This document shows positions 3,244-30,327 of a stretch of 64,000 nt of DNA, one piece after another (position 1 is the first letter of the stretch; the number at the start of each line of letters is the position of its first letter). The translations under genes were made by a program, and so were the position numbers. Source of the stretch: Roseiflexus sp. RS-1 (lineage in GTDB: Bacteria > Chloroflexota > Chloroflexia > Chloroflexales > Roseiflexaceae); contig NC_009523.1 of assembly GCF_000016665.1 (NCBI RefSeq), positions 558,001 through 622,000 of the forward strand. The letters are read 5' to 3'. The notes beneath the pieces are model-generated. The model was not told the origin of the DNA. It was given only the letters and a program-made list of their open reading frames with translations, and made no database searches.

Positions 3244-4499
3244 ATGGACTTTGAATAAATATTCCGTTATACTAATATTCATCCGTGTCAAGCCTTTCTC
3301 AGGAGGTTGCGATGCCGGCACGCCGGACCCTTCACGTGTCCGTCGAGGAGCGGGAGGCCCTCGAAGACCTGCGCGATCACGCCCCCAAGCCCTATTTGCG
3401 CGAACGGGCGGCGGCATTACTGCTCATCGCGTCTGGCGTACCGCCTGCCGTCGTGGCCCGCGAACGCTTGCTGCGTCCGCGCCATCCGGAAACCGTCTAT
3501 CTCTGGCTGAATCGCTGGGAAGCCGAGGGCATCGATAGCCTCCCCATCCGGGACGGACGCGGGCGCACGCCCGCTTTTTCCCCCTGACCGCCATGACCCT
3601 GAGACGGCGGCGACTGAGGTAGAGCATCTGGTCCGCCGTGACCCGCGGCAGTGCGGGCTGACCCAGACGCGCTGGACCCTGGACGCCATCCGCAGCCAGT
3701 TGGCGTGGGGGCGCGACGCCTCGCTGAGCGGGATCGCCCGTATTCTGGATCGGTTGGGCATCACCTGGCAGCGCGCCCGCAGTCATGTGCATCGCCCTGA
3801 TCCCCACGATCAGGCCAAACTGCAGGAGATCGCAGACGTGGTGGAGGATGCCCGCGCGCACCCCAACCAGGTGGTGACCGTGTATCTGGATGAAGTCACG
3901 GTCACCCGGCAACCGACCCTGGCCAACGGGTATGGGCGGGCGGGCGCCGATCAGGTGCGGGCGGAACGGAGTCTGGCGACCGATTGCGAACTGCGCATCG
4001 TGGGCAGTTTGGACGTTGTGACGGGCCAGGTGGTCACCCGGCGGGCGAAGACGATTGGCCTGGCGACGCTGGCGCCGTGCTTCCCGGACCGGCGCGCTGC
4101 CTATCCTGAGGCTGAGCGCATCGATGTCATTCTGGATAATTGGCCGGTCCATTTTCATCCGGATGTCCTGGTGGCGCTTGAGCCGCAAACAACCCGCTGG
4201 GCGTTTTCCCGTCCTGGCAATTGGCCGGCCACCCCCAGTGTGCGGGCCGTGCGCCGGGCTGGAGATGTCCGCCTGCCCATCCAACTGATGCCGTTGCCGA
4301 CGTATGCGTCGTGGTGTAACCCGATCGAGAAGCTGTGGCGGTGGATGCGTCAGGAGGTCACCCGCGTGCATCGCTGGGCGACGGATCTCGATCAGTTGCG
4401 CAACCACCTGGATGCCTTCTTCGCGTCGTTTGCAACCGGCTCGTCAAAGCTTTTACAGTATGTCGGTCTCGGATAGCGGATTATTTATTCAAAGACCAT
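3244..4499 (+). mobile_element. IS630-family insertion sequence
   Basis: About 1256 bp bounded by imperfect 27-bp inverted repeats (3244-3270 and 4473-4499, 24 of 27 matching) with the core CTTTGAATAAATA and TCCG(T/C)TAT. The transposase fills nearly the whole element, and its stop codon lies in the right end. Both ends sit inside the interspersed GCTAGCCG-GGGCT repeat, so the exact tips and the expected TA duplication cannot be fixed from this sequence alone. Confidence 0.8.
3312..4476 (+). CDS. IS630-family transposase split over two frames
   Basis: The start ATG at 3312 has a strong AGGAGG five bases upstream. Frame 1 (3312-3587, 91 residues) carries the helix-turn-helix part (LHVSVEEREALEDLRDHA, VYLWLNRWEAEGIDSL) and stops at TGA 3585-3587. 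The rest continues in the +1 frame, open from 3574: TAATEVEHLVRRDPRQCGLT, then the DDE domain with VYLDEVTVTR (first D), IDVILDNWPVH (second D) and CNPIEKLWRWMRQEV (E). The junction is T5C5 followed by TGA, in codons TTT TCC CCC TGA. It may be a programmed +1 shift or a one-base indel in the homopolymer. Without the shift no full transposase is made. Confidence 0.85.
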
Positions 4500-4700
4500 A
4501 AGCCCTCGGCTAGCCAGGGCGAAGCCCGCCTGCGCGGGCTATGGCGGAATAATTACTCAAAGACCATAAGCCGTCTTGCAATGACCGGAGCAGATCATGG
4601 TGGGTCCTGTTGTAGAACCGGATGCCGTAAACGTCAACCCTGGGGAGGGATCTGCGGATTCCGTATATCCCTCCTTTAGAGAGGCAAAAACGGAGTCCGT
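4500..4700. repeat. Second IS630-end copy and flanking non-coding sequence
   Basis: Immediately right of IS630 the unit TAAGCCCTCGGCTAGCC, palindromic GCCCGCCTGCGCGGGC and a further end copy (ATGGCGGAATAATTACTCAA, 4540-4566) repeat the element end in the same orientation. The part to 4700 contains the imperfect hairpin GGAGGGAT...ATCCCTCC (about 4642-4673). No gene is supported. Confidence 0.55.
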
Positions 4701-12744: not shown

Positions 12745-12983
12745 CCCTTTTGCCCCTCATCCCCCGTCTCTCAAGGGTGGATTTCTTGGGAGAGATGCGT
12801 GATGTTCTGCATTCCGGCGCGCTGTTGCCCCTCATCCCCCCTGCCCCCCTTCTCCCCTTGTGGGAGAAGGGGGGAGTTGGGCGTCCTGATGCCTGCAACG
12901 GGAGATGGCACGCAGGGGCTTCCCAAAAAACCTGCTCCTGGAACTTTCCTCACTTTTCCCACACAGCGAGAAGTGGTCGTTCT
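12745..12983. repeat. GC-rich palindromic repeat region
   Basis: Contains CCTCATCCCCC twice and a stem (CTTCTCCCC, then TTGTGGGAGAAGGGGGGAG) followed by TTGGGCGTCCTGATGCCTGC and ATGGCACGCAGGGGCTTCC. The same block, in nearly the same order, occurs at 26676-26840 and, reversed and shorter, at 16895-16985. It is an interspersed repeat between genes, able to fold as a hairpin; a role in transcript ends is possible but there is no T tract. Confidence 0.7.
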
Positions 12984-16894: not shown

Positions 16895-16985
16895 GGGCTT
16901 CAGGACGCCCCACCCTCCCCCTTCTCCCCGTGTGGGAGCAGGAGGGCATGGGGGGTGAGGGGCAAAAGCGCACAGAATGCAGAAA
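16895..16985. repeat. Palindromic GC-rich repeat copy
   Basis: CCCCTTCTCCCCGTGTGGGA followed by GCAGGAGGGCATGGGGGGTG and AGGGGCAAAAG. A reverse-orientation, shortened copy of the repeat at 12745-12983. It sits directly upstream of the histidine kinase start and may separate it from the next gene. Confidence 0.65.
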
Positions 16986-18689: not shown

Positions 18690-19126
18690 TAGTCGCCCTG
18701 CGCGTCACTCAGCGCGCCGCACAGCATGCGGCGCACCTCTGCATCGCAGGAACGGCGGACGCCGTCAGCGCCGCCCACGCCGCCCAACACTGCGCCGAGG
18801 CGGTCGCAGACCTGGCGCGTCGGACGACGGCGCTGGCGCAACGCATAACCGACCGCTCCGGCGTAGCAGTAGCGACGGACGTCGTGACCGACGCCGCGAC
18901 GCTGGCCGCCGAAGCGGCCGCAGACGCTGCGGGCGACGCGATGAACGCCGCCGCTGGCGAACCATCCGCGCACGTTGCCGCCCGCGCCGCTGCTGGTATC
19001 GTCGCCAATGCGGCGCTCATCGCTTGCGATGCTGCCGTGGTGGTGCTGCGCGCCGCTGCTGCGCGTCGCTGTCGCCGCGCACTGGCACGGCGCATGCCGC
19101 GCCGACGAAGGACACCAACATGCTGA
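18674..19126 (+). CDS. Alanine-rich unknown protein
   Basis: 150 residues, more than a third alanine, with an extended heptad-like helical pattern (VTDAATLAAEAAADAAGDAM) and an arginine-rich tail (RRCRRALARRMPRRRR). The start GGTTC context follows an AAAGGAGC ribosome site (18660-18667). It overlaps the preceding gene by 16 bases. Its final codons run into the 84-bp tandem repeat array. Alternative frames are also open because of base composition, so I am only moderately sure it is a gene. Confidence 0.5.
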   Translation: MVHSLIVALRVTQRAAQHAAHLCIAGTADAVSAAHAAQHCAEAVADLARRTTALAQRITDRSGVAVATDVVTDAATLAAEAAADAAGDAMNAAAGEPSAHVAARAAAGIVANAALIACDAAVVVLRAAAARRCRRALARRMPRRRRTPTC

Positions 19127-19703
19127 TGCCGCGATAGGCAATGATCGTCGGTGTCGGTGTGTCAGTGTTGGGGCGCAGTGTTGGGGCACGGCATGCCGCG
19201 CCCCGACTGATGCCGCGATAGGCGATGATCGTCGGTGTCGGTGTGTCGGTGTTGGGGCGCAGTGTTGGGGCACGGCATGCCGCGCCCCGACTGATGCCGC
19301 GATAGGCGATGATCGTCGGTGTCGGTGTGTCGGTGTTGGGGCGCAGTGTTGGGGCACGGCATGCCGTGCCCCGACTGATGCCGCGATAGGCGATGATCGT
19401 CGGTGTCGGTGTGTCGGTGTTGGGGCACAGTGTTGGGGCACGGCATGCCGCGCTCCGACTGATGCCGCGATAGGCGATGATCGTCGGTGTCGGTGTGTCG
19501 GTGTTGGGGCGCAGTGTTGGGGCACGGCATGCCGCGCTCCGACTGATGCCGCGATAGGCGATGATCGTCGGTGTCGGTGTGTCGGTGTTGGGGCGCAGTG
19601 TTGGGGCACGGCATGCCGCGCTCCGACTGATGCCGCGATAGGCGATGATCGTCGGCGTCGGTGTGTCAGTGTTGGGGCACGGCATGCCGTGCCCCGACTG
19701 ATG
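19126..19703. repeat. 84-bp tandem repeat array (six full copies plus a shorter seventh)
   Basis: Units start at 19126, 19210, 19294, 19378, 19462, 19546 and 19630, exactly 84 bp apart. Each reads ATGCCGCGATAGGCGATGAT, CGTCGGTGTCGGTGTGTCGG, TGTTGGGGCGCAGTGTTGGG and ends in a palindrome (GCACGGCATGCCGTGC, in some copies GCACGGCATGCCGCGC). The last unit lacks 15 bp. Since 84 is divisible by three every frame stays open, which creates long spurious reading frames. Single copies of the unit recur at 21174. No spacer variation is present, so it is not a CRISPR array. Confidence 0.9.
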
Positions 19704-19888
19704 ACCGGGATTGCACGACGCAGCGTCGCTGCCGTCGCTCCCGCGCTCCGCGCCTTCGCACCTCCGCGTGCGCCGGTCGATCGCACGCCGAGACGCAGCG
19801 CGCGCAGAGGGATGGCGCAGGCGGCGCTCGCCGCGCTTCTCCAGCGCATTGCCCGATAGTCCTATCCTTGCTTGATACCAACGTCCTA

Positions 19889-20096: not shown

Positions 20097-21036
20097 TGAC
20101 TCGCCTTCGTCCGCTTCTCATGCTTGTCGCGCTGCTGCTGGCCGCCGACGCCGCGCTGACCGGCGCTCCGCAGCGCACGCCGACCCCCCCGCGCCGACGG
20201 ACGTTCCTACGCCATCGGTTCCGCCCGATTCGTCAGACGTTGGCGCCGCCATTGTTGCAACGATGGACGATGAGGACGACGATGCGCCGCAGACGATTCC
20301 GGCAGACGAATTGCTCGCTCCGGACGGCACGCTGCGCCTGGATGGCGCAGTCACCGGCGTGGTGGACCTCAGCGGCTGGCACGTAACCCTCGATCCGGAG
20401 ATCGGACCGGTCTTCCATCCACAGTCGTTCACGTGGGAACATCTGGGAACGCGACCGGGCGCGCTCAACAACGCCGTTTACGCCGTCGCTGTGAGCGGGA
20501 GCGACGTGTATGTCGGCGGCGGCTTCACCGACGCAGGCGGCAACCCGAACGCCGATTACATCGCCCGCTGGGACGGCAGTGCGTGGCATCCGCTCGGCGG
20601 CGGGGTGAACGAAGCGGTTCGCGCCATCGCCGTGAGCGGAGGGAACGTCTATGTCGGCGGCGGCTTCACCGACGCAGGCGGCAACCCGAATGCCGACCGC
20701 ATCGCCCGCTGGGACGGCAGTGCGTGGCATGCGCTCGGCGACGGAGTGAACGGTACGGTGAACGCCATCGCCGTGAGCGGGACGGACCTCTACGTCGGCG
20801 GCTGGTTCACCGACGCAGGCGGCAACCCGAACGCCGACCGCATCGCCCGCTGGGACGGCAGTGCGTGGCATGCGCTCGGCGACGGGGTGAACGGTACGGT
20901 GAACGCCATCGCCGTGAGCGGGACGGACCTCTACGTCGGCGGCTGGTTCACCGACGCAGGCGGCAACCCGAACGCCGATGGCATTGGACGCGCATCGCTG
21001 CTCAAGAAGGCGTACCTGCCGCTGATCGTGCGGTAG
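20097..21036 (+). pseudogene. Secreted repeat (beta-propeller-like) protein, frameshifted at a C run
   Basis: The ATG at 20097 has AGGAG upstream and starts a clear signal peptide (MTRLRPLLMLVALLLAADAA). After QRTPTPP the frame must shift at C7 (20184-20190) to reach APTDVPTPSVPPDSSDV and the body. The body has four 46-residue repeats (VYAVAVSGSDVYVGGGFTDA, GGNPNADYIARWDGSAWHPL and variants), the last two almost identical, as in propeller-like adhesins of this group. The C-terminus is KAYLPLIVR. One base added in the C run restores a 312-residue secreted protein; phase variation, decay and sequencing error are all possible. Confidence 0.75.
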
Positions 21037-21300: not shown

Positions 21301-21680
21301 CCGCCGCGTGAGACGGTCGAACGCATGCGACGGCGCAGCGCGCACGGAGATCGGTCGCACGAGACCGCTGCTTCCAGCGGAGCGTTCGATGTCCTGTGAG
21401 CGCTGCGCTGCGCCGAAAGAGCGCAGTTTTCATAGCGATTGAACCTCTTCGGACAAACGCAGTCACGTGCGCTCCTCGTGTGACGACCACCTTGCGTGGC
21501 GGTCGGAGAGCAGCCATCCGCCATCGTCCGTCGTCAAGCGCGCGACTCCGCTTGTGCGGGCTCAAGCCCTCCCTGAGCGTATGGAAGCCCCTGCGGGGCT
21601 GGCATGTCTGTCACCCTTCCCTCTGCCGGGAGGGGCGCCGGGTTGATCCAGCCCGCAGGGCTTGCCCGACCTCAGATAGG

Positions 21681-21840
21681 GCTTATGGTCTTTGAGTAAT
21701 TATTCCGCCATAGCCCGCGCAGGCGGGCTTTGCCCTGGTTAGCCGAGGGCTTATGGTCTTTGAGTAATTATTCCGCCATAGCCCGCGCAGGCGGGCTTTG
21801 CCCTGGTTAGCCGAGGGCTTCAGCCCCACGGCTAGCGCAG
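21681..21840. repeat. Two tandem 68-bp IS630-end repeats
   Basis: GGCTTATGGTCTTTGAGTAA TTATTCCGCCAT, then the palindromic GCCCGCGCAGGCGGGC and TAGCCGAG, occurs twice with a 68-bp period (from 21681 and 21749). The first part matches the inverted end of the IS630 element. Same direct orientation as the array at 26.9 kb. Confidence 0.75.
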
Positions 21841-21925
21841 TATAGCGGATTTAATTTTCAATCTCCATCAGCCCGCTGGAGGCGCACAACGATGGAACGC
21901 TCCAGCCAGGCAAGGGTCAACGTAT

Positions 21926-21940
21926 CTGAGAACTGCTATA
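21926..21940. repeat. Solitary end of the TATAGCAGTTCTCA MITE family
   Basis: TGAGAACTGCTATA preceded by GTCAACGTATC, the right-end sequence of the MITE at 2952-3165. No matching left end is present upstream, so this is a relic or a partial element. Confidence 0.6.
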
Positions 21941-21975
21941 AATGCTCAATCTTCCTCCGCCCGCCGTCGCCGCAC

Positions 21976-22512
21976 GCGGGCGGGGACGCCCGCGCACCCA
22001 GGACGCACGTGCTTCAATCATTCCGCCCATCGCTCCAGGCGGTGAGAACGCCATAGCCCGCGCAGGCGGGCTTCGCCCTGGATAGCCGAGGGCTTCAGCC
22101 CGACGGCACGCGGTGCATAGCGGATTTAATGCTCAATCTCCATCAGCCCGACGGCACGCGGGCGAGGACGCCCGCGCACCCAGGACGCACGTGCTTCAAT
22201 CATTCCGCCCATCGCTCCAGGCGGTGAGAACGCCACAGCCCGCGCAGGCGGGCTTCGCCCTGGATAGCCGAGGGCTTCAGCCCGACGGCACGCGGTGCAT
22301 AGCGGATTTAATGCTCAATCTCCATCAGCCCGACGGTACGCAGGCGAGACGCCCGCGCACCCAGGACGACCGCGCACCCAGGACGCACGTGCTTCAATCA
22401 TTCCGCCCATCGCTCCAGGCGGTGAGAACGCCATAGCCCGCGCAGGCGGGCTTCGCCCTGGATAGCCGAGGGCTTCAGCCCGACGGCACGCGGTGCATAG
22501 CGGATTTAATGC
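21976..22512. repeat. Tandem 182-bp repeats (three copies)
   Basis: The marker GGACGCACGTGCTTCAATCA occurs at 22001, 22183 and 22381; the last period is 198 because of a 16-bp internal duplication. Each unit carries GCCCGCGCAGGCGGGC, TAGCCGAGGGCTTCAGCCCG and GCATAGCGGATTTAATGCTC AATCTCCATC. Related single pieces occur near 14370-14400. No coding sequence is supported in the array. Confidence 0.8.
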
Positions 22513-25500
22513 TCAATCTTCCTCCGCCCGCCCCACACTCCCCCCTTGCCCGCGTGCGGGCGAGGGGGGCAGGGGGGATGAGGGGGAAAACGCCTCCAGC
22601 ACCAGCCGCCGGGTGCGGTACTCGCCGTACTGCCGCAGTTCCTTCTCCTTCAACACCCGAAACGTCTCGCCGGGGAAGTCGGGTCCTTCCACGTCGTGCG
22701 GGTCAAGGATGTAGCGCAGGTCGTCGCGGGAGACGCCGTACAACCGCGCGATGCGCGCATCGAGCTCGGCGCGGATGCGCGCGCGCCGGTCGTCGTTCCA
22801 GATGAACGGCGGCGGCGGCGCGGCGTCGTCCGCCGTCGCCGCAACGACGGCGGCGGCAATCTCCGGCGGCGTGCGCGCAGCGCAGGCGCGCAGGTTCTCC
22901 GCGTGCTGCGCCAGGATCGCCGCCCGCAGCCCCGCATCCGCCTCCGCCCAGACATCCGCCGCGAAGGGCTGCACGTCCCACGCGGTGGAGACCAGTTCCA
23001 CCACCCGCGGCACGATGAAGGCGATGTCCGCCGCGCTGAACGCCTCCGGCGGCAGTACGGGGAGTTGGGTCAGATAGGTGTAGGTGAGATGCGTGCCGCC
23101 GATCTTCTGCCTGGTGATCCAGTCAAAGATGAGACTGTTGACGACTGCCAGGAAGCAGGCTGCCAGATCAGCGCGCAGCGTCTGGAACAGCATAAGCGGC
23201 ACGGTATGCCCCACCCCCACGCGCGGCAGCAGGCTGAAAATGGCGGTGCGCTCATTCGTGGCATTGGTAATATCGCGCCACCCCAGCAGCCAGCGCCGTT
23301 CCCAGCGCCCCGCCAGGCGCGCCTCGACCTCGGCGGCGGGAACCAGGTAGCGCGGCGTGATCGTCCACGTCGGGTCGGCGAGTTCGGCGGCGGTCGCCTC
23401 GCGCGGCGCGCCGCCGTCGTAGGTCGCCCAGCGGTGGGTGAACTGGTGCAGCAGCTTGGCTTCGTAGAGCGGCAGGTGATCGCCCCATCCCGCCCTCGCT
23501 TCCGCCGGCGCGGGAACCGGACGGAACAGGTGGCTGTCGCTGGTCATATTGAACAACCCCTGACGGAAGGTAACTCCCCATGGACTCTCTCCGGTCGTTT
23601 CGTTGATCAGCACCGGGACGCGGGCGTAGATTGCGGCGGTCAGGTCGGCGTCGCGGCGGGTGCGGAAGAGCGGCGCGGTGCGGGTGTTGGGGTTGATGCG
23701 CGCCAGGTCGGTAGGGGTGAGCGAGAAGACGCGCCGTTCGTCGCGCAGGTGCGCCACGCGCGTGGCGAAGAAGACGAAGCGCGGGGCTGCCTGCGCCGCG
23801 CCGATCGTCAGCAGGCTGAATTTGTAGCGACTATCCACATCGGCGAAGAGTTTCTCGCGGTTCTCGAAGTCGTACAGGCTGATGATCTGCTGGCGGGCGA
23901 TCAGGTCGCCGAAGAAGGCTTTGGCGCCGTCGTCGGTGGCAATGCCGGTCGGCACGATGATCCCCGCCCGCCCGTCAGGCGCGAGCAGGGTGCGGCTCAG
24001 TTCGGCGAAGAGCGCGTAGGTGTTTAGCCGCCCAACTGCCGTAAGTGAGAAGCGCCCGCTATTGTGGATGAATCGACTCTCCGCCTCAGCACGGTAGAGC
24101 GCCGCGTCGTACTGCGCGATGCGCCGCTGCTGCTCCGGCGTTCCCCGCCGCCAGGCGGCGATCTGTTTTTTGCGGGCATCCCCAGTTGGTGCATCGCGGA
24201 TCGCCGGAATATCCACGAAGTGCTCGCGCTCAATGAGATTAAGCATCTCCCACGGCGGGTTGCCCAGCACCACGTCGAACCCGCCGCGGTCGGCGAAGAC
24301 CTGGGCGAACTCCAGCTCCCAGTGGAAGAAGCCGATCTCCTGTGCCAGTCCCCCTGCCAGCAGCGCCTTCTGGCTGGTCGGATCGGCGTCGATGACATCG
24401 GCGCTCGTCGGAACCCACGGCGCATTGGCGCGCGTCAACGGCTGGAAGAACGCCGCCGTCCACAGGTCGTAGCGGGCGCGCTCCCGCAGGTGCGCCCGGC
24501 GCAGGTCGGCGTAACGCGCGGCGCGGGCGCGCACCGCCGCCACACTCTCGTCCGGCAGGTCGTCAAGCGCCGCCAGCGCGCGCGCCAGGGGCGTGTCGGT
24601 CGGTTCGTCGGCGAACATGCGCTCCTGCACGGCGCGGTCGCGGGTGTACGCATCGCGCTCCGCGCGGTTGCGTTTGCGCAGCTCCGCAGCGATCCCCTTC
24701 TCGTCGCCGTGGATCGGGCGGTACGCCTCGTCGGGGATGCCCTGCGCCACCAGGGCGCGCGTGGCGCCGACGAGCGCGTTGCCGCAGCGGATGTGGTGGT
24801 CGAGGAAACTGAGCGGCAACCCGGCGGCGTGCCCTTCGATCCACAGCGCCAGTTTGCACAGGTCGACCGCCAGCGGGTTGAGATCAACGCCAAAGATGCA
24901 GCGCCGGATCACGTCGCGCACGGCGTGGCGAAACTGCGCCGGCGACGGCTCATCATCGCCAGCGCGGATGCGCGCCAGTTCGCGCCCCAGGCGCCGGGCG
25001 GCGGCGAGCAGAAAATGCCCCGATCCGCACGCCGGGTCGCAGACGCGGATGGAGAGCAGCGCCGCTTCGCGCGCAGCAGCGTCGCGTCCGGCGGACGCCA
25101 GGCGCTGCGCCAGCACCGGTTCCAGCGCGCTGGCGATCAGTTCCTGCACCAGTTCCGGGCGGGTGTAGTAACTGCCGGTCGTCTTGCGTTCCGTTCCGGG
25201 GATCAGGTCGAAGCGCACGTCGGGTGATCCCGCCGGGGCGTGGGCGATCACCGGGCGATAGTCGAGCAGCGCCTCGTAGACGCTGCCGAGTTCTTCGACA
25301 TCGAGCGCGCCGTAGTTCACCCGGCGCAGCGTCCGGCTCTCCGGGTCGTGGTAGAGCGCGAGGGCGCGGATGGCGGCGAGCAGGTCGGCGTTCGCCATGC
25401 GGGTCTCCGCCGTCAGGTGGGGGCATGCCGTTTCGCTGAAGAGGTCGCCATCGAGCGGCGCGATCGGGAAGCGATGGCTGACGCTCCCCTCAAAGATACG

Positions 25501-26634
25501 GAAGGCGGCGAGCAGTCCGATCCAGAGGTCGCCGTACCCGCCCTCGCCCGCCGACGCTGCGACGCCGGCATGTTCCGCCAGCCGACGCAACCGCGCCATA
25601 CTGTAGTGCGCGTGGTAGATGGCGAGCGCGCGGTCGGCGTCACCTTCCACCCCCCCGAACCCCCCCGCACGCGGGGGGGACTGGGGGGGTGCGGCGGCGA
25701 TCAGGGCGCGCTCCTCGGCGACCATCAGGAAGAGGAGGCGGTAGACCAGGCGCAACACCTGGCGGTAGAACGCCTGCGGGGTCAGGTCGCCGCTGGCGAG
25801 GGCGCGGCGCAGGCGCTCATTGGCGGGGTGGCGCAGCAAGCCGTTGGCCAGCGTCTTCAGCGCCTGCTCCACCCCGTCGCGCAGGCGGTCGCGCACCCGT
25901 CCGCCCTGTGCCAGCGCCTGCTGATGGTAGCGTTCGAGCCAGCACTCCGGCGCATCGGCGGCGCGCTGCGGCAGGCGCGAACGGTGGAGCAGGCGATAGA
26001 GCAGGGCGAAATCGCTGAACCGTTCCCCCTCCAGCATCGCCTGGAGGTCGAACTCGACATACGTCGGGCGGGTGAAACGCGCCGATTCGCGCAGCAGGCG
26101 CAGGCGCACGCCATTGGTCACGATCCCCCACAGGTGGTCGGTCGCATTGAGGTACTCCTGCACCAGCGCGTGGGGCGACAGGCGCACCCCCCCAGTCCCC
26201 TCCGCGCGCGGGGGGGTTCGGGGGGGTGAGGGCGGGCGCACATCGAGGCTGACGCGCACGCCGGTGATATGGATCGGCGGCGCGTCGTCGGCGTCGCCGG
26301 CGCGGTGCGAAATGGCATACGTGCGCCCGGCGACGACGAACGCCTGGCGGTTGCGCTCCAGGGTATAGCCGAGGATGCGGAGGAGGGGGATCGCCCAGTA
26401 GTCGCGGGTGAGCGCGGCGGCGGTCGAATCGTGGGGCGGCAGATCGGCGAGGTGCGTCTGAAAGAGCGCCCACTGCGCGCGCGCCGCCTGCCAGGCGGTC
26501 GAAATACGGTCGGAGAGGGTGCGCGTCCGCTCCATGCCGAAATCTTCGGGACGCTGCCCGTCCACCGCGCCGGCGGCAATCGCGTCCAGGATGTCGGCGG
26601 GCAACAACCCGCCCTCGGTGATGATGGCGTTCAT
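22513..26634 (-). CDS. Eco57I-type N6-adenine DNA methylase (DrmMI-like, large)
   Basis: 1373 residues from the ATG at 26634; a longer frame to 26928 only translates repeats. Middle part: RKTTGSYYTRPELVQELIAS leads into motif I VCDPACGSGHFLLAAARRLG, then GVDLNPLAVDLCKLALWIEG, and the catalytic motif FDVVLGNPPWEMLN (NPPW). A TaqI-like target-recognition region follows (SYYTRP to C-terminus). The N-terminal 400 residues have no recognised nuclease motif. Two proline/glycine-rich stretches (PPSPPRTPPRAEGTGGV, PPQSPPRAGGFGGV) are translated from GC-rich palindromes inserted in frame, and the last 25 residues come from a third. It is the methylase half of a defence pair with the helicase at 27367-30327. 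Confidence 0.85.
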   Translation of the reverse strand: MNAIITEGGLLPADILDAIAAGAVDGQRPEDFGMERTRTLSDRISTAWQAARAQWALFQTHLADLPPHDSTAAALTRDYWAIPLLRILGYTLERNRQAFVVAGRTYAISHRAGDADDAPPIHITGVRVSLDVRPPSPPRTPPRAEGTGGVRLSPHALVQEYLNATDHLWGIVTNGVRLRLLRESARFTRPTYVEFDLQAMLEGERFSDFALLYRLLHRSRLPQRAADAPECWLERYHQQALAQGGRVRDRLRDGVEQALKTLANGLLRHPANERLRRALASGDLTPQAFYRQVLRLVYRLLFLMVAEERALIAAAPPQSPPRAGGFGGVEGDADRALAIYHAHYSMARLRRLAEHAGVAASAGEGGYGDLWIGLLAAFRIFEGSVSHRFPIAPLDGDLFSETACPHLTAETRMANADLLAAIRALALYHDPESRTLRRVNYGALDVEELGSVYEALLDYRPVIAHAPAGSPDVRFDLIPGTERKTTGSYYTRPELVQELIASALEPVLAQRLASAGRDAAAREAALLSIRVCDPACGSGHFLLAAARRLGRELARIRAGDDEPSPAQFRHAVRDVIRRCIFGVDLNPLAVDLCKLALWIEGHAAGLPLSFLDHHIRCGNALVGATRALVAQGIPDEAYRPIHGDEKGIAAELRKRNRAERDAYTRDRAVQERMFADEPTDTPLARALAALDDLPDESVAAVRARAARYADLRRAHLRERARYDLWTAAFFQPLTRANAPWVPTSADVIDADPTSQKALLAGGLAQEIGFFHWELEFAQVFADRGGFDVVLGNPPWEMLNLIEREHFVDIPAIRDAPTGDARKKQIAAWRRGTPEQQRRIAQYDAALYRAEAESRFIHNSGRFSLTAVGRLNTYALFAELSRTLLAPDGRAGIIVPTGIATDDGAKAFFGDLIARQQIISLYDFENREKLFADVDSRYKFSLLTIGAAQAAPRFVFFATRVAHLRDERRVFSLTPTDLARINPNTRTAPLFRTRRDADLTAAIYARVPVLINETTGESPWGVTFRQGLFNMTSDSHLFRPVPAPAEARAGWGDHLPLYEAKLLHQFTHRWATYDGGAPREATAAELADPTWTITPRYLVPAAEVEARLAGRWERRWLLGWRDITNATNERTAIFSLLPRVGVGHTVPLMLFQTLRADLAACFLAVVNSLIFDWITRQKIGGTHLTYTYLTQLPVLPPEAFSAADIAFIVPRVVELVSTAWDVQPFAADVWAEADAGLRAAILAQHAENLRACAARTPPEIAAAVVAATADDAAPPPPFIWNDDRRARIRAELDARIARLYGVSRDDLRYILDPHDVEGPDFPGETFRVLKEKELRQYGEYRTRRLVLEAFSPSSPLPPSPARGQGGSVGRAEED
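25648..25691. repeat. In-frame palindrome inside the methylase gene, copy 1
   Basis: CACCCCCCCGAACCCCCCCG then CACGCGGGGGGGACTGGGGG GG form a near-perfect hairpin. Read on the minus strand it encodes PPQSPPRAGGFGGVE without breaking the frame. Opposite orientation to copy 2. Confidence 0.75.
26186..26228. repeat. In-frame palindrome inside the methylase gene, copy 2
   Basis: ACCCCCCCAGTCCCCTCCGC then GCGCGGGGGGGTTCGGGGGG, translated as PPSPPRTPPRAEGTGGV. Same palindrome family as copy 1 but inverted, located near residues 140-160 where homologous methylases have no such insert (inference). Confidence 0.7.
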
Positions 26635-26659: not shown

Positions 26660-26840
26660 TTCCCGCGCCTTTTGCCCCTCATCCCCCCGCGCCCCTTCTC
26701 CCACACGGGGAGAAGGGGGAGTTTGGGCGTTCTGATGGCTGAAACGGAAGATGGCACGCAGGGGCTTGCCAAAACATCTCCCCCTGTGCGCATCCCCCCC
26801 GCCCCCTTCTCCCACACGGGGAGAAGGGGGGTTGGTCGTC
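26660..26840. repeat. Palindromic GC-rich repeat region, two copies
   Basis: CTTCTCCCACACGGGGAGAA GGGGG occurs at 26694 and again at 26806, with GTTTGGGCGTTCTGATGG and ATGGCACGCAGGGGCTTGCC between, the same order as at 12820-12930. It lies just upstream of the methylase start. Confidence 0.75.
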
Positions 26841-26864
26841 CTGATGCGTCACACTGCGCTCGCC

Positions 26865-27130
26865 GGCGCAGGCGGGCTTCGCCCTGGCTAGCCGGGGGCT
26901 TATGGTCTTTGAATAAATAATCCGCCATAGCCCGCGCAGGCGGGCTTCGCCCTGGCTAGCCGGGGGCTTATGGTCTTTGAATAAATAATCCGCGCTCGCC
27001 GGCGCAGGCGGGCTTCGCCCTGGCTAGCCGGGGGCTTATGGTCTTTGAATAAATAATCCGCCATAGCCCGCGCAGGCGGGCTTCGCCCTGGCTAGCCGAG
27101 GGCTTCAGCCCCACGGCTAGCGCGGGATAG
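26865..27130. repeat. Tandem IS630-end repeat array
   Basis: Four direct copies with a period of about 66-68 bp of GCGCAGGCGGGCTTCGCCCT, GGCTAGCCGGGGGCTTATGG and TCTTTGAATAAATAATCCG. The final part of each unit matches the IS630 right inverted repeat at 4473-4499 almost base for base. No transposase is present. Confidence 0.8.
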
Positions 27131-27135
27131 CGGAT

Positions 27136-27365
27136 TATAGCAGTTCTCAGATACGTTGACCCTTCTTCGTGCGCCTCAGGCGGGCTGAAGCCCTATCTGA
27201 GGTCAGGCAAGCCCTGCGGGCTGGATCAACCCGACGACCCCTCGGCAGAGGGAAGGGTGACGGACACGCCAGCCCCGCAGGGGCTTCCACGCATTCAGGA
27301 AGGGCTTTAGCCCGCACGCGCTGCGGTCGTCCAGGGAGGTTCAACCTCATATGAGAACTGCTATA
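27136..27365. mobile_element. MITE-like element with TATAGCAGTTCTCA ends, abutting the helicase stop
   Basis: 230 bp; starts TATAGCAGTTCTCAGATACG and ends TATGAGAACTGCTATA, perfect 14-bp inverted ends. The interior (AAGCCCTATCTGAGGTCAGG, AGCCCCGCAGGGGCTTCCAC) contains small hairpins and no gene. It ends two bases before the helicase stop codon, so it determines the 3' end of that transcript. Confidence 0.75.
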
Positions 27366-27366
27366 A

Positions 27367-30327
<2,961 letters not shown>

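What the first reader, a model, noticed from the sequence alone, without database searches (positions are those of the whole stretch)
25648..26228. Palindromes inserted in frame inside the methylase
Two near-identical GC palindromes in opposite orientation are translated as PPQSPPRAGGFGGV and PPSPPRTPPRAEGTGGV and a third forms the C-terminus. This recalls Rickettsia palindromic elements that create protein segments. Related hairpin repeats lie between genes at 12.8, 16.9 and 26.7 kb.
Basis: partly seen in the sequence, partly recalled or inferred. Interest (0 to 1): 0.75.

Follow-up and report, generated by a model that had tools for sequence, protein, structure and literature searches.

The report
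Mobile GC hairpins translated inside a methylase
A small, strongly palindromic DNA repeat found only in one lineage of hot-spring bacteria has repeatedly been copied into DNA-methylase genes and translated as extra protein, each time replacing a few host bases; this is a new example of protein-coding palindromes like those known from Rickettsia, with clean before-and-after sites that let the copying mechanism be tested.

Summary
Confirmed. Two copies of one 46-nt GC hairpin (25648-25693, and 26183-26228 in opposite orientation; chance expectation 0) lie in frame in a 1373-aa Eco57I/DISARM-type DNA methylase. The homologues aligned there (at least 14) lack insert 1 (11 extra residues); insert 2 sits in a length-variable loop. 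Related copies occur in a paralogous methylase of the same 5.8-Mb genome (Roseiflexus sp. RS-1 by its length). That paralogue and its orthologue in a sister Roseiflexus (94% nt identity) show reciprocal presence/absence at three sites, net +12, +51 and +27 nt. In all six filled/empty comparisons the element replaces 9-17 host bases, without target duplication. A copy in a transposase gene is +28 nt and shifts the frame, so frame preservation reflects selection, not the insertion itself. The GAA/ACT-marked element was not found in 84,980 species genomes (exact pattern; near relatives may be omitted); a looser form occurs only in another Roseiflexus.

The "third palindrome" at the C-terminus and the hairpins at 12.8, 16.9 and 26.7 kb are a different, mainly intergenic family (96 exact copies); the methylase reads into one at its 3' end. 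This works like Rickettsia palindromic elements and intragenic REPs but fails membership tests of known families. Best mechanism, inferred: homology-templated replacement, then selection for in-frame copies.

The parts
22513..26634 (-). Host gene: Eco57I/N6-type adenine DNA methylase, 1373 aa, best PADLOC matches DrmMI (DISARM methylase) and type IIG enzymes; the longer ORF to 26928 starts in repeats
   Evidence: homologues begin at about residue 2-4 of the 26634 start
26183..26228 (-). Palindrome family A, insert 1 (GAA orientation relative to the gene), encodes PPRTPPRAEGTGGV; net +33 nt against homologues
25648..25693 (+). Palindrome family A, insert 2 (opposite orientation), encodes APPQSPPRAGGFGGV in a length-variable loop after the conserved VAEERALI stretch
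22540..22593 (-). Family B hairpin read as the new C-terminus (SPLPPSPARGQGGSVGRAEED)
26667..26730 (+). Family B hairpin, intergenic, upstream of the methylase
26789..26841 (+). Family B hairpin, intergenic
12825..12884 (+). Family B hairpin, intergenic
16908..16971 (-). Family B hairpin, intergenic, degenerate
27367..30327 (-). Neighbouring SNF2-type helicase (DpdE/DrmD-like), directly upstream of the methylase on the same strand

Best explanation
Shown: a 46-nt GC-rich hairpin (CACCCCCCC-GAA-CCCCCCCGC-RY-GCGGGGGGG-ACT-GGGGGGGTGCG), confined as far as tested to Roseiflexus, has been copied several times into accessory genes (DNA methylases, transposases) and into other repeats. Its consensus contains no stop codon in any of the six frames. 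Each copy that can be compared with an empty site replaced 9-17 host bases and made no target duplication. In the methylases the net change is always a multiple of three, so the palindrome is translated as a Pro-rich then Gly-rich loop; in a transposase an out-of-frame copy also exists. Inferred: the copies spread by short templated replacement, that is template switching or gene conversion at a stalled fork or break using a few bases of matching sequence (such hairpins, and the G7-N3-G7 tract that could form a G-quadruplex, are expected fork blocks), rather than by a transposase. Selection then keeps only in-frame copies in tolerant loops of genes still in use. No benefit of the insert to the methylase is shown or needed.
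For: Homologues lack insert 1 by 11 codons. Paralogue versus G001 orthologue: 94.4% nt and 93.6% aa identity, reciprocal presence/absence at three sites, nets +12, +51, +27, and further homologues lack them; dN/dS 0.32, so the gene is constrained. Replacement: site 1 loses 9 nt (GGGCCGCCC in a close homologue), S3 11, P1 11 and P2 14 nt, the IS5-like transposase 17 nt, the ISAs1-like transposase 9 nt. The last is net +28 and breaks the frame. Truncated copies also replace TGGCTAG inside repeat family C at two loci, and similar palindromes occupy the loop of family B hairpins in three sister genomes. Site 1 and P1 lie at the same codon in paralogues of about 54% identity with no longer conversion tract around them. 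The two Y1 transposases of the genome are surrounded by other repeats.
Against: Only six filled/empty comparisons, and only those with G001 and with the IS5 copies use closely related DNA; terminal matches are short and partly expected in GC-rich sequence. Empty sites in genes are not significantly hairpin-prone, so palindrome-triggered targeting is not shown. Loss of host bases could follow an ordinary insertion. A distant transposase acting in trans cannot be excluded.
Confidence: 0.6

Rival explanations
1. The palindromes are REP-like elements moved by a Y1/RAYT (IS200/IS605-type) transposase that cuts single-stranded hairpins; the missing host bases were lost afterwards.
For: RS-1 has two Y1 transposases, both above the IS200/IS605 family cut-off, each embedded in hairpin repeats; REPs inside ORFs are documented in RAYT-bearing bacteria (PMC3733652).
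Against: The repeats around the two genes are other families, not A; no family A site lies within 6 kb of either. The REP-associated transposase model is far below cut-off (20.2 bits against 80). From general knowledge of IS200/IS605 transposition, neither target loss nor duplication is expected, but loss of 9-17 nt is seen at six of six sites.
Confidence: 0.27
2. The inserts were kept because they do something: a translational pause or mRNA hairpin, or a useful Pro/Gly linker in defence methylases.
For: Repeated occurrence in the same methylase family (window gene, RS-1 paralogue, G001 orthologue), all read in the same phase relative to the element; very stable RNA hairpins.
Against: Orthologues 94% identical do without them, in both directions; many RS-1 copies are in transposases or repeat DNA; inserts fall in length-variable loops.
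Confidence: 0.1
3. The segments are native, conserved proline/glycine-rich loops of this methylase family.
For: Open frame through both segments.
Against: Absent from the homologues aligned at site 1, present as the same DNA palindrome in unrelated transposases and repeats.
Confidence: 0.02
4. Assembly or sequencing artefact.
For: GC-rich hairpins are hard to sequence.
Against: Several distinct copies in a single-contig genome, and related copies in independent Roseiflexus assemblies, with lineage-specific substitutions.
Confidence: 0.01

Closest known systems
Rickettsia palindromic elements (RPEs)
   Same: Palindromic repeats inserted in frame in unrelated genes and translated; also present between genes
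   Different: RPEs are described as about 150 bp with a conserved peptide (PMC10969869), RPE-4/6 being CGTC-tagged (PMC3733652); here 46 nt, GC-rich, no tag, Roseiflexus-limited as far as tested, replaces host bases, and an out-of-frame copy also exists
GTAG-/CGTC-tagged REPs located inside ORFs (PMC3733652)
   Same: 20-40 bp palindromes inside coding sequences, often in DNA-processing genes, with two inserts in one gene and, in one case, different REPs at about the same site of recB; some inserted within other palindromes (T. roseum)
   Different: No GTAG or CGTC tag; no associated transposase found; documented replacement of 9-17 host bases
Bacterial MITEs / REPINs
   Same: Small, non-autonomous, dispersed, self-complementary
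   Different: No terminal inverted repeats of an IS identified, no target-site duplication, no regular doublet structure for family A in RS-1

Membership tests
Rickettsia palindromic elements | Palindromic repeat inserted in frame inside protein genes | tested here: met
Rickettsia palindromic elements | Element of about 150 bp encoding a conserved peptide | tested here: not met
   46 nt, 14-17 aa; size of RPEs from PMC10969869
GTAG/CGTC REP superfamilies | Unpaired GTAG or CGTC tag at one end of a short stem-loop | tested here: not met
   No GTAG/CTAC/CGTC/GACG within the four aligned copies
RAYT-mobilised REPs | Same palindrome flanks a Y1/REP-associated tyrosine transposase gene | tested here: not met
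   Two Y1 genes, flanked by other repeats; no family A copy there
RAYT-mobilised REPs | Movement depends on the transposase | not testable with these tools
   Needs an experiment
MITEs | Target-site duplication on insertion | tested here: not met
   Six filled/empty comparisons show loss of 9-17 nt instead
DISARM / DrmMI (the host gene) | drmA and drmB beside the methylase | tested here: not met
   Methylase and DrmD/DpdE-like helicase present; nine tested ORFs nearby have no PADLOC match

The most novel reading that the evidence does not exclude
A class of bacterial palindromic repeats that spreads without a transposase: hairpin-induced fork stalling and template switching overwrite 9-17 bases of the target with a copy of the palindrome, including nesting inside other palindromes, and thereby add new translated loops to proteins.
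Probability: 0.4. Interest if true: 0.7.

Novelty: new variant of a known kind. Interest (0 to 1): 0.52.

Why it matters
Protein-coding palindromes are known mainly from Rickettsia and scattered REP-bearing genomes, and how they move has remained unclear. Here a 94%-identical orthologue pair gives before/after sites in both directions, an out-of-frame control copy, and a repeated signature of host-base replacement. That makes the question of transposition versus templated repair directly testable, and shows a route by which small loops are added to proteins, in this case anti-phage type methylases.

Tried and rejected
Idea that insertion targets are themselves quasi-palindromic: suggestive by eye (CGCCGGACGGACCGGCG, CCGGACGTCCCCGG), but folding energy and stem length of the empty gene sites are not significant against their own genes (fractions 0.18, 0.08, 0.45, 0.15 or 0.03, 0.79), so not claimed for genes. 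Idea that site 1 was copied to the paralogue by a long gene-conversion tract: rejected, flanking identity to the window gene is the same for RS-1 and G001. Solved-structure homologue to map the loops: none. Pfam on the two transposase relics: no significant match; their identity rests on intact copies and motif recognition from memory.

Full report
What is there. The window is bases 558001-622000 of a single 5,801,598-base contig; that length matches Roseiflexus sp. RS-1 as I remember it (not tested by name), and the named records with a similar palindrome are an uncultured Roseiflexus MAG. The gene is a 1373-aa adenine methylase on the - strand (22513-26634), with Pfam Eco57I, MmeI_Mtase and N6_Mtase matches and best PADLOC matches DrmMI and type IIG enzymes. 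Its motifs DPACGSGHF and NPPW are intact. Directly upstream on the same strand is a DrmD/DpdE-like SNF2 helicase; no drmA or drmB was found among nine tested neighbouring ORFs. The longer ORF that starts at 26928 begins inside repeats; homologues start at about residue 2-4 of the 26634 start.

The two palindromes are copies of one element, 46 nt, in opposite orientation. The pattern has two exact matches in the window and none in 100 shuffles. A covariance model gives 76 and 74 bits; every other hairpin of the window scores 24.5 bits or less. At the C-terminus the gene runs into a family B copy: homologues end at about LVLEAWDREN, this protein continues SPSSPLPPSPARGQGGSVGRAEED.

They are insertions. 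At site 1, the 14 homologues aligned there, from the same genus to the same order, read RPPS-GRPRLSPH or similar where this protein reads RPPS-PPRTPPRAEGT-GGVRLSPH; by codons a close homologue has GGGCCGCCC where this gene has 42 nt of palindrome, net +33. Site 2 falls in a loop whose length varies among homologues, so its exact net length cannot be given.

The strongest evidence is in a paralogue. The same genome holds a second methylase (3130714-3134508; about 54% identical over residues 3-795 of the window protein) with a larger palindrome in frame (FAPPQSPPPTPHARGGGMGVVGVALT). Its orthologue in G001, same genus, is 93.6% identical in protein and 94.4% in DNA. They differ at three palindrome sites: P1 and P2 filled in RS-1 and empty in G001, S3 filled in G001 (AAPPPRTPPPAGGTEGVLAQ) and empty in RS-1 (AAPDLARVLAH), with net changes +12, +51 and +27 nt. 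More distant homologues also lack them. dN/dS between the pair is 0.32, so the gene that carries the inserts is under constraint.

P1 is a shortened element (CACCCTCCCGAACC|GGGGGGGTGCG, inner hairpin gone) at exactly the codon of site 1 in the window gene, although the paralogues are otherwise far apart; flanking identity to the window gene is no higher than for G001. Either the site is a hotspot or a very short tract was copied between paralogues.

Frame is not always kept. Genome-wide, near-complete family A copies in RS-1 are at 84133, 555666, 583648, 584183, 3132289 and 3933395, plus two truncated copies nested in an intergenic repeat at 3867949 and 5469605. The copy at 3933395 lies in an ISAs1-like transposase gene: G001 reads HWTIENRVFRVRDVTYDED, RS-1 reads HWTIENHPPDPPARGGVWGGA-stop, net +28 nt. 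The copy at 555666 is in an IS5-like transposase remnant whose empty versions exist at 4927422 and 3934759; net +27. So insertion itself is indifferent to frame, and the four measurable methylase sites (+33, +12, +51, +27) are most simply in frame because others would not survive (chance 1/81 if each were random and independent).

Host bases are replaced. In every filled/empty comparison the element takes the place of host sequence: site 1, 9 nt; ISAs1-like, 9; S3, 11; P1, 11; P2, 14; IS5-like, 17 (counted by me on the alignments). In the family C repeats a truncated copy replaces TGGCTAG. In three sister genomes (G002, G003, G005) related palindromes occupy the loop of family B hairpins. No target duplication is seen. 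This is unlike IS or MITE insertion and is what a templated repair event (template switch, short gene conversion) would leave. That step is inference.

Distribution. The GAA/ACT form has no exact match in the 84,980-species collection (the own genome and near relatives may be left out by the tool); the same skeleton with any internal loop matches only another Roseiflexus MAG. Another Roseiflexus in the relatives set, G004, has several dozen model hits (72 counting both strands), mostly a TTT/AAA or TGC/GCA version in arrays near contig ends. All in-gene RS-1 copies are in accessory genes (methylases, transposases).

No dedicated transposase was found. RS-1 has two Y1 transposases (907781, 3138680), IS200/IS605-like and below the cut-off of the REP-associated model, each surrounded by other repeats; no family A copy lies beside them.

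Comparison with the known. REPs inside ORFs, including paired inserts in one gene and a bias to DNA-repair genes, are described for GTAG/CGTC families and Rickettsia RPEs (PMC3733652; PMC10969869). This element works like them but is not a member by tag, size or transposase association. What is added here is the reciprocal before/after evidence, the out-of-frame control and the replacement signature. I rate it a new variant of a known kind.

Noticed in passing
window 4473-4575, 21679-22533, 26845-27136; L160 (genome 905001-911000): A third repeat family (GCCCGCGCAGGCGGGCTTCGCCCTGGCTAGCCGAGGGCTT...TTTGAATAAATAATCCG) in tandem blocks; related repeats surround a Y1/IS200-like transposase at 907781, so it may be the real REP/transposase partner in this genome.
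   Followed up: partly
L159 (genome 3135001-3145000), around 3138680: A second Y1 transposase gene sits inside long tandem arrays of another palindromic repeat (CGATTGACATCGCCCCTGGCGGGC... and GGCGGAACGCCCGCACGGCGCGATTTC...).
   Followed up: no
L144, genome 84133-85545: A family A palindrome in an IS5-like remnant is itself interrupted in its 3' arm by an insertion of about 1.4 kb with terminal inverted repeats GGGGCGGACAGAAC.
   Followed up: partly
L109-L128 (G004): A sister Roseiflexus MAG has arrays of TTT/AAA-marked palindromes separated by short recurring spacers, many at contig ends; possibly an amplified relative of family A.
   Followed up: partly
L129, L132, L136, L138, L139, L140 (G003, G002, G005): Palindromes nested in the loop of family B hairpins, building multi-tier hairpins.
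   Followed up: partly
window 19039-19794, 20480-20991: Tandem repeats of 84 and 141 nt on the two sides of 20 kb, not examined.
   Followed up: no
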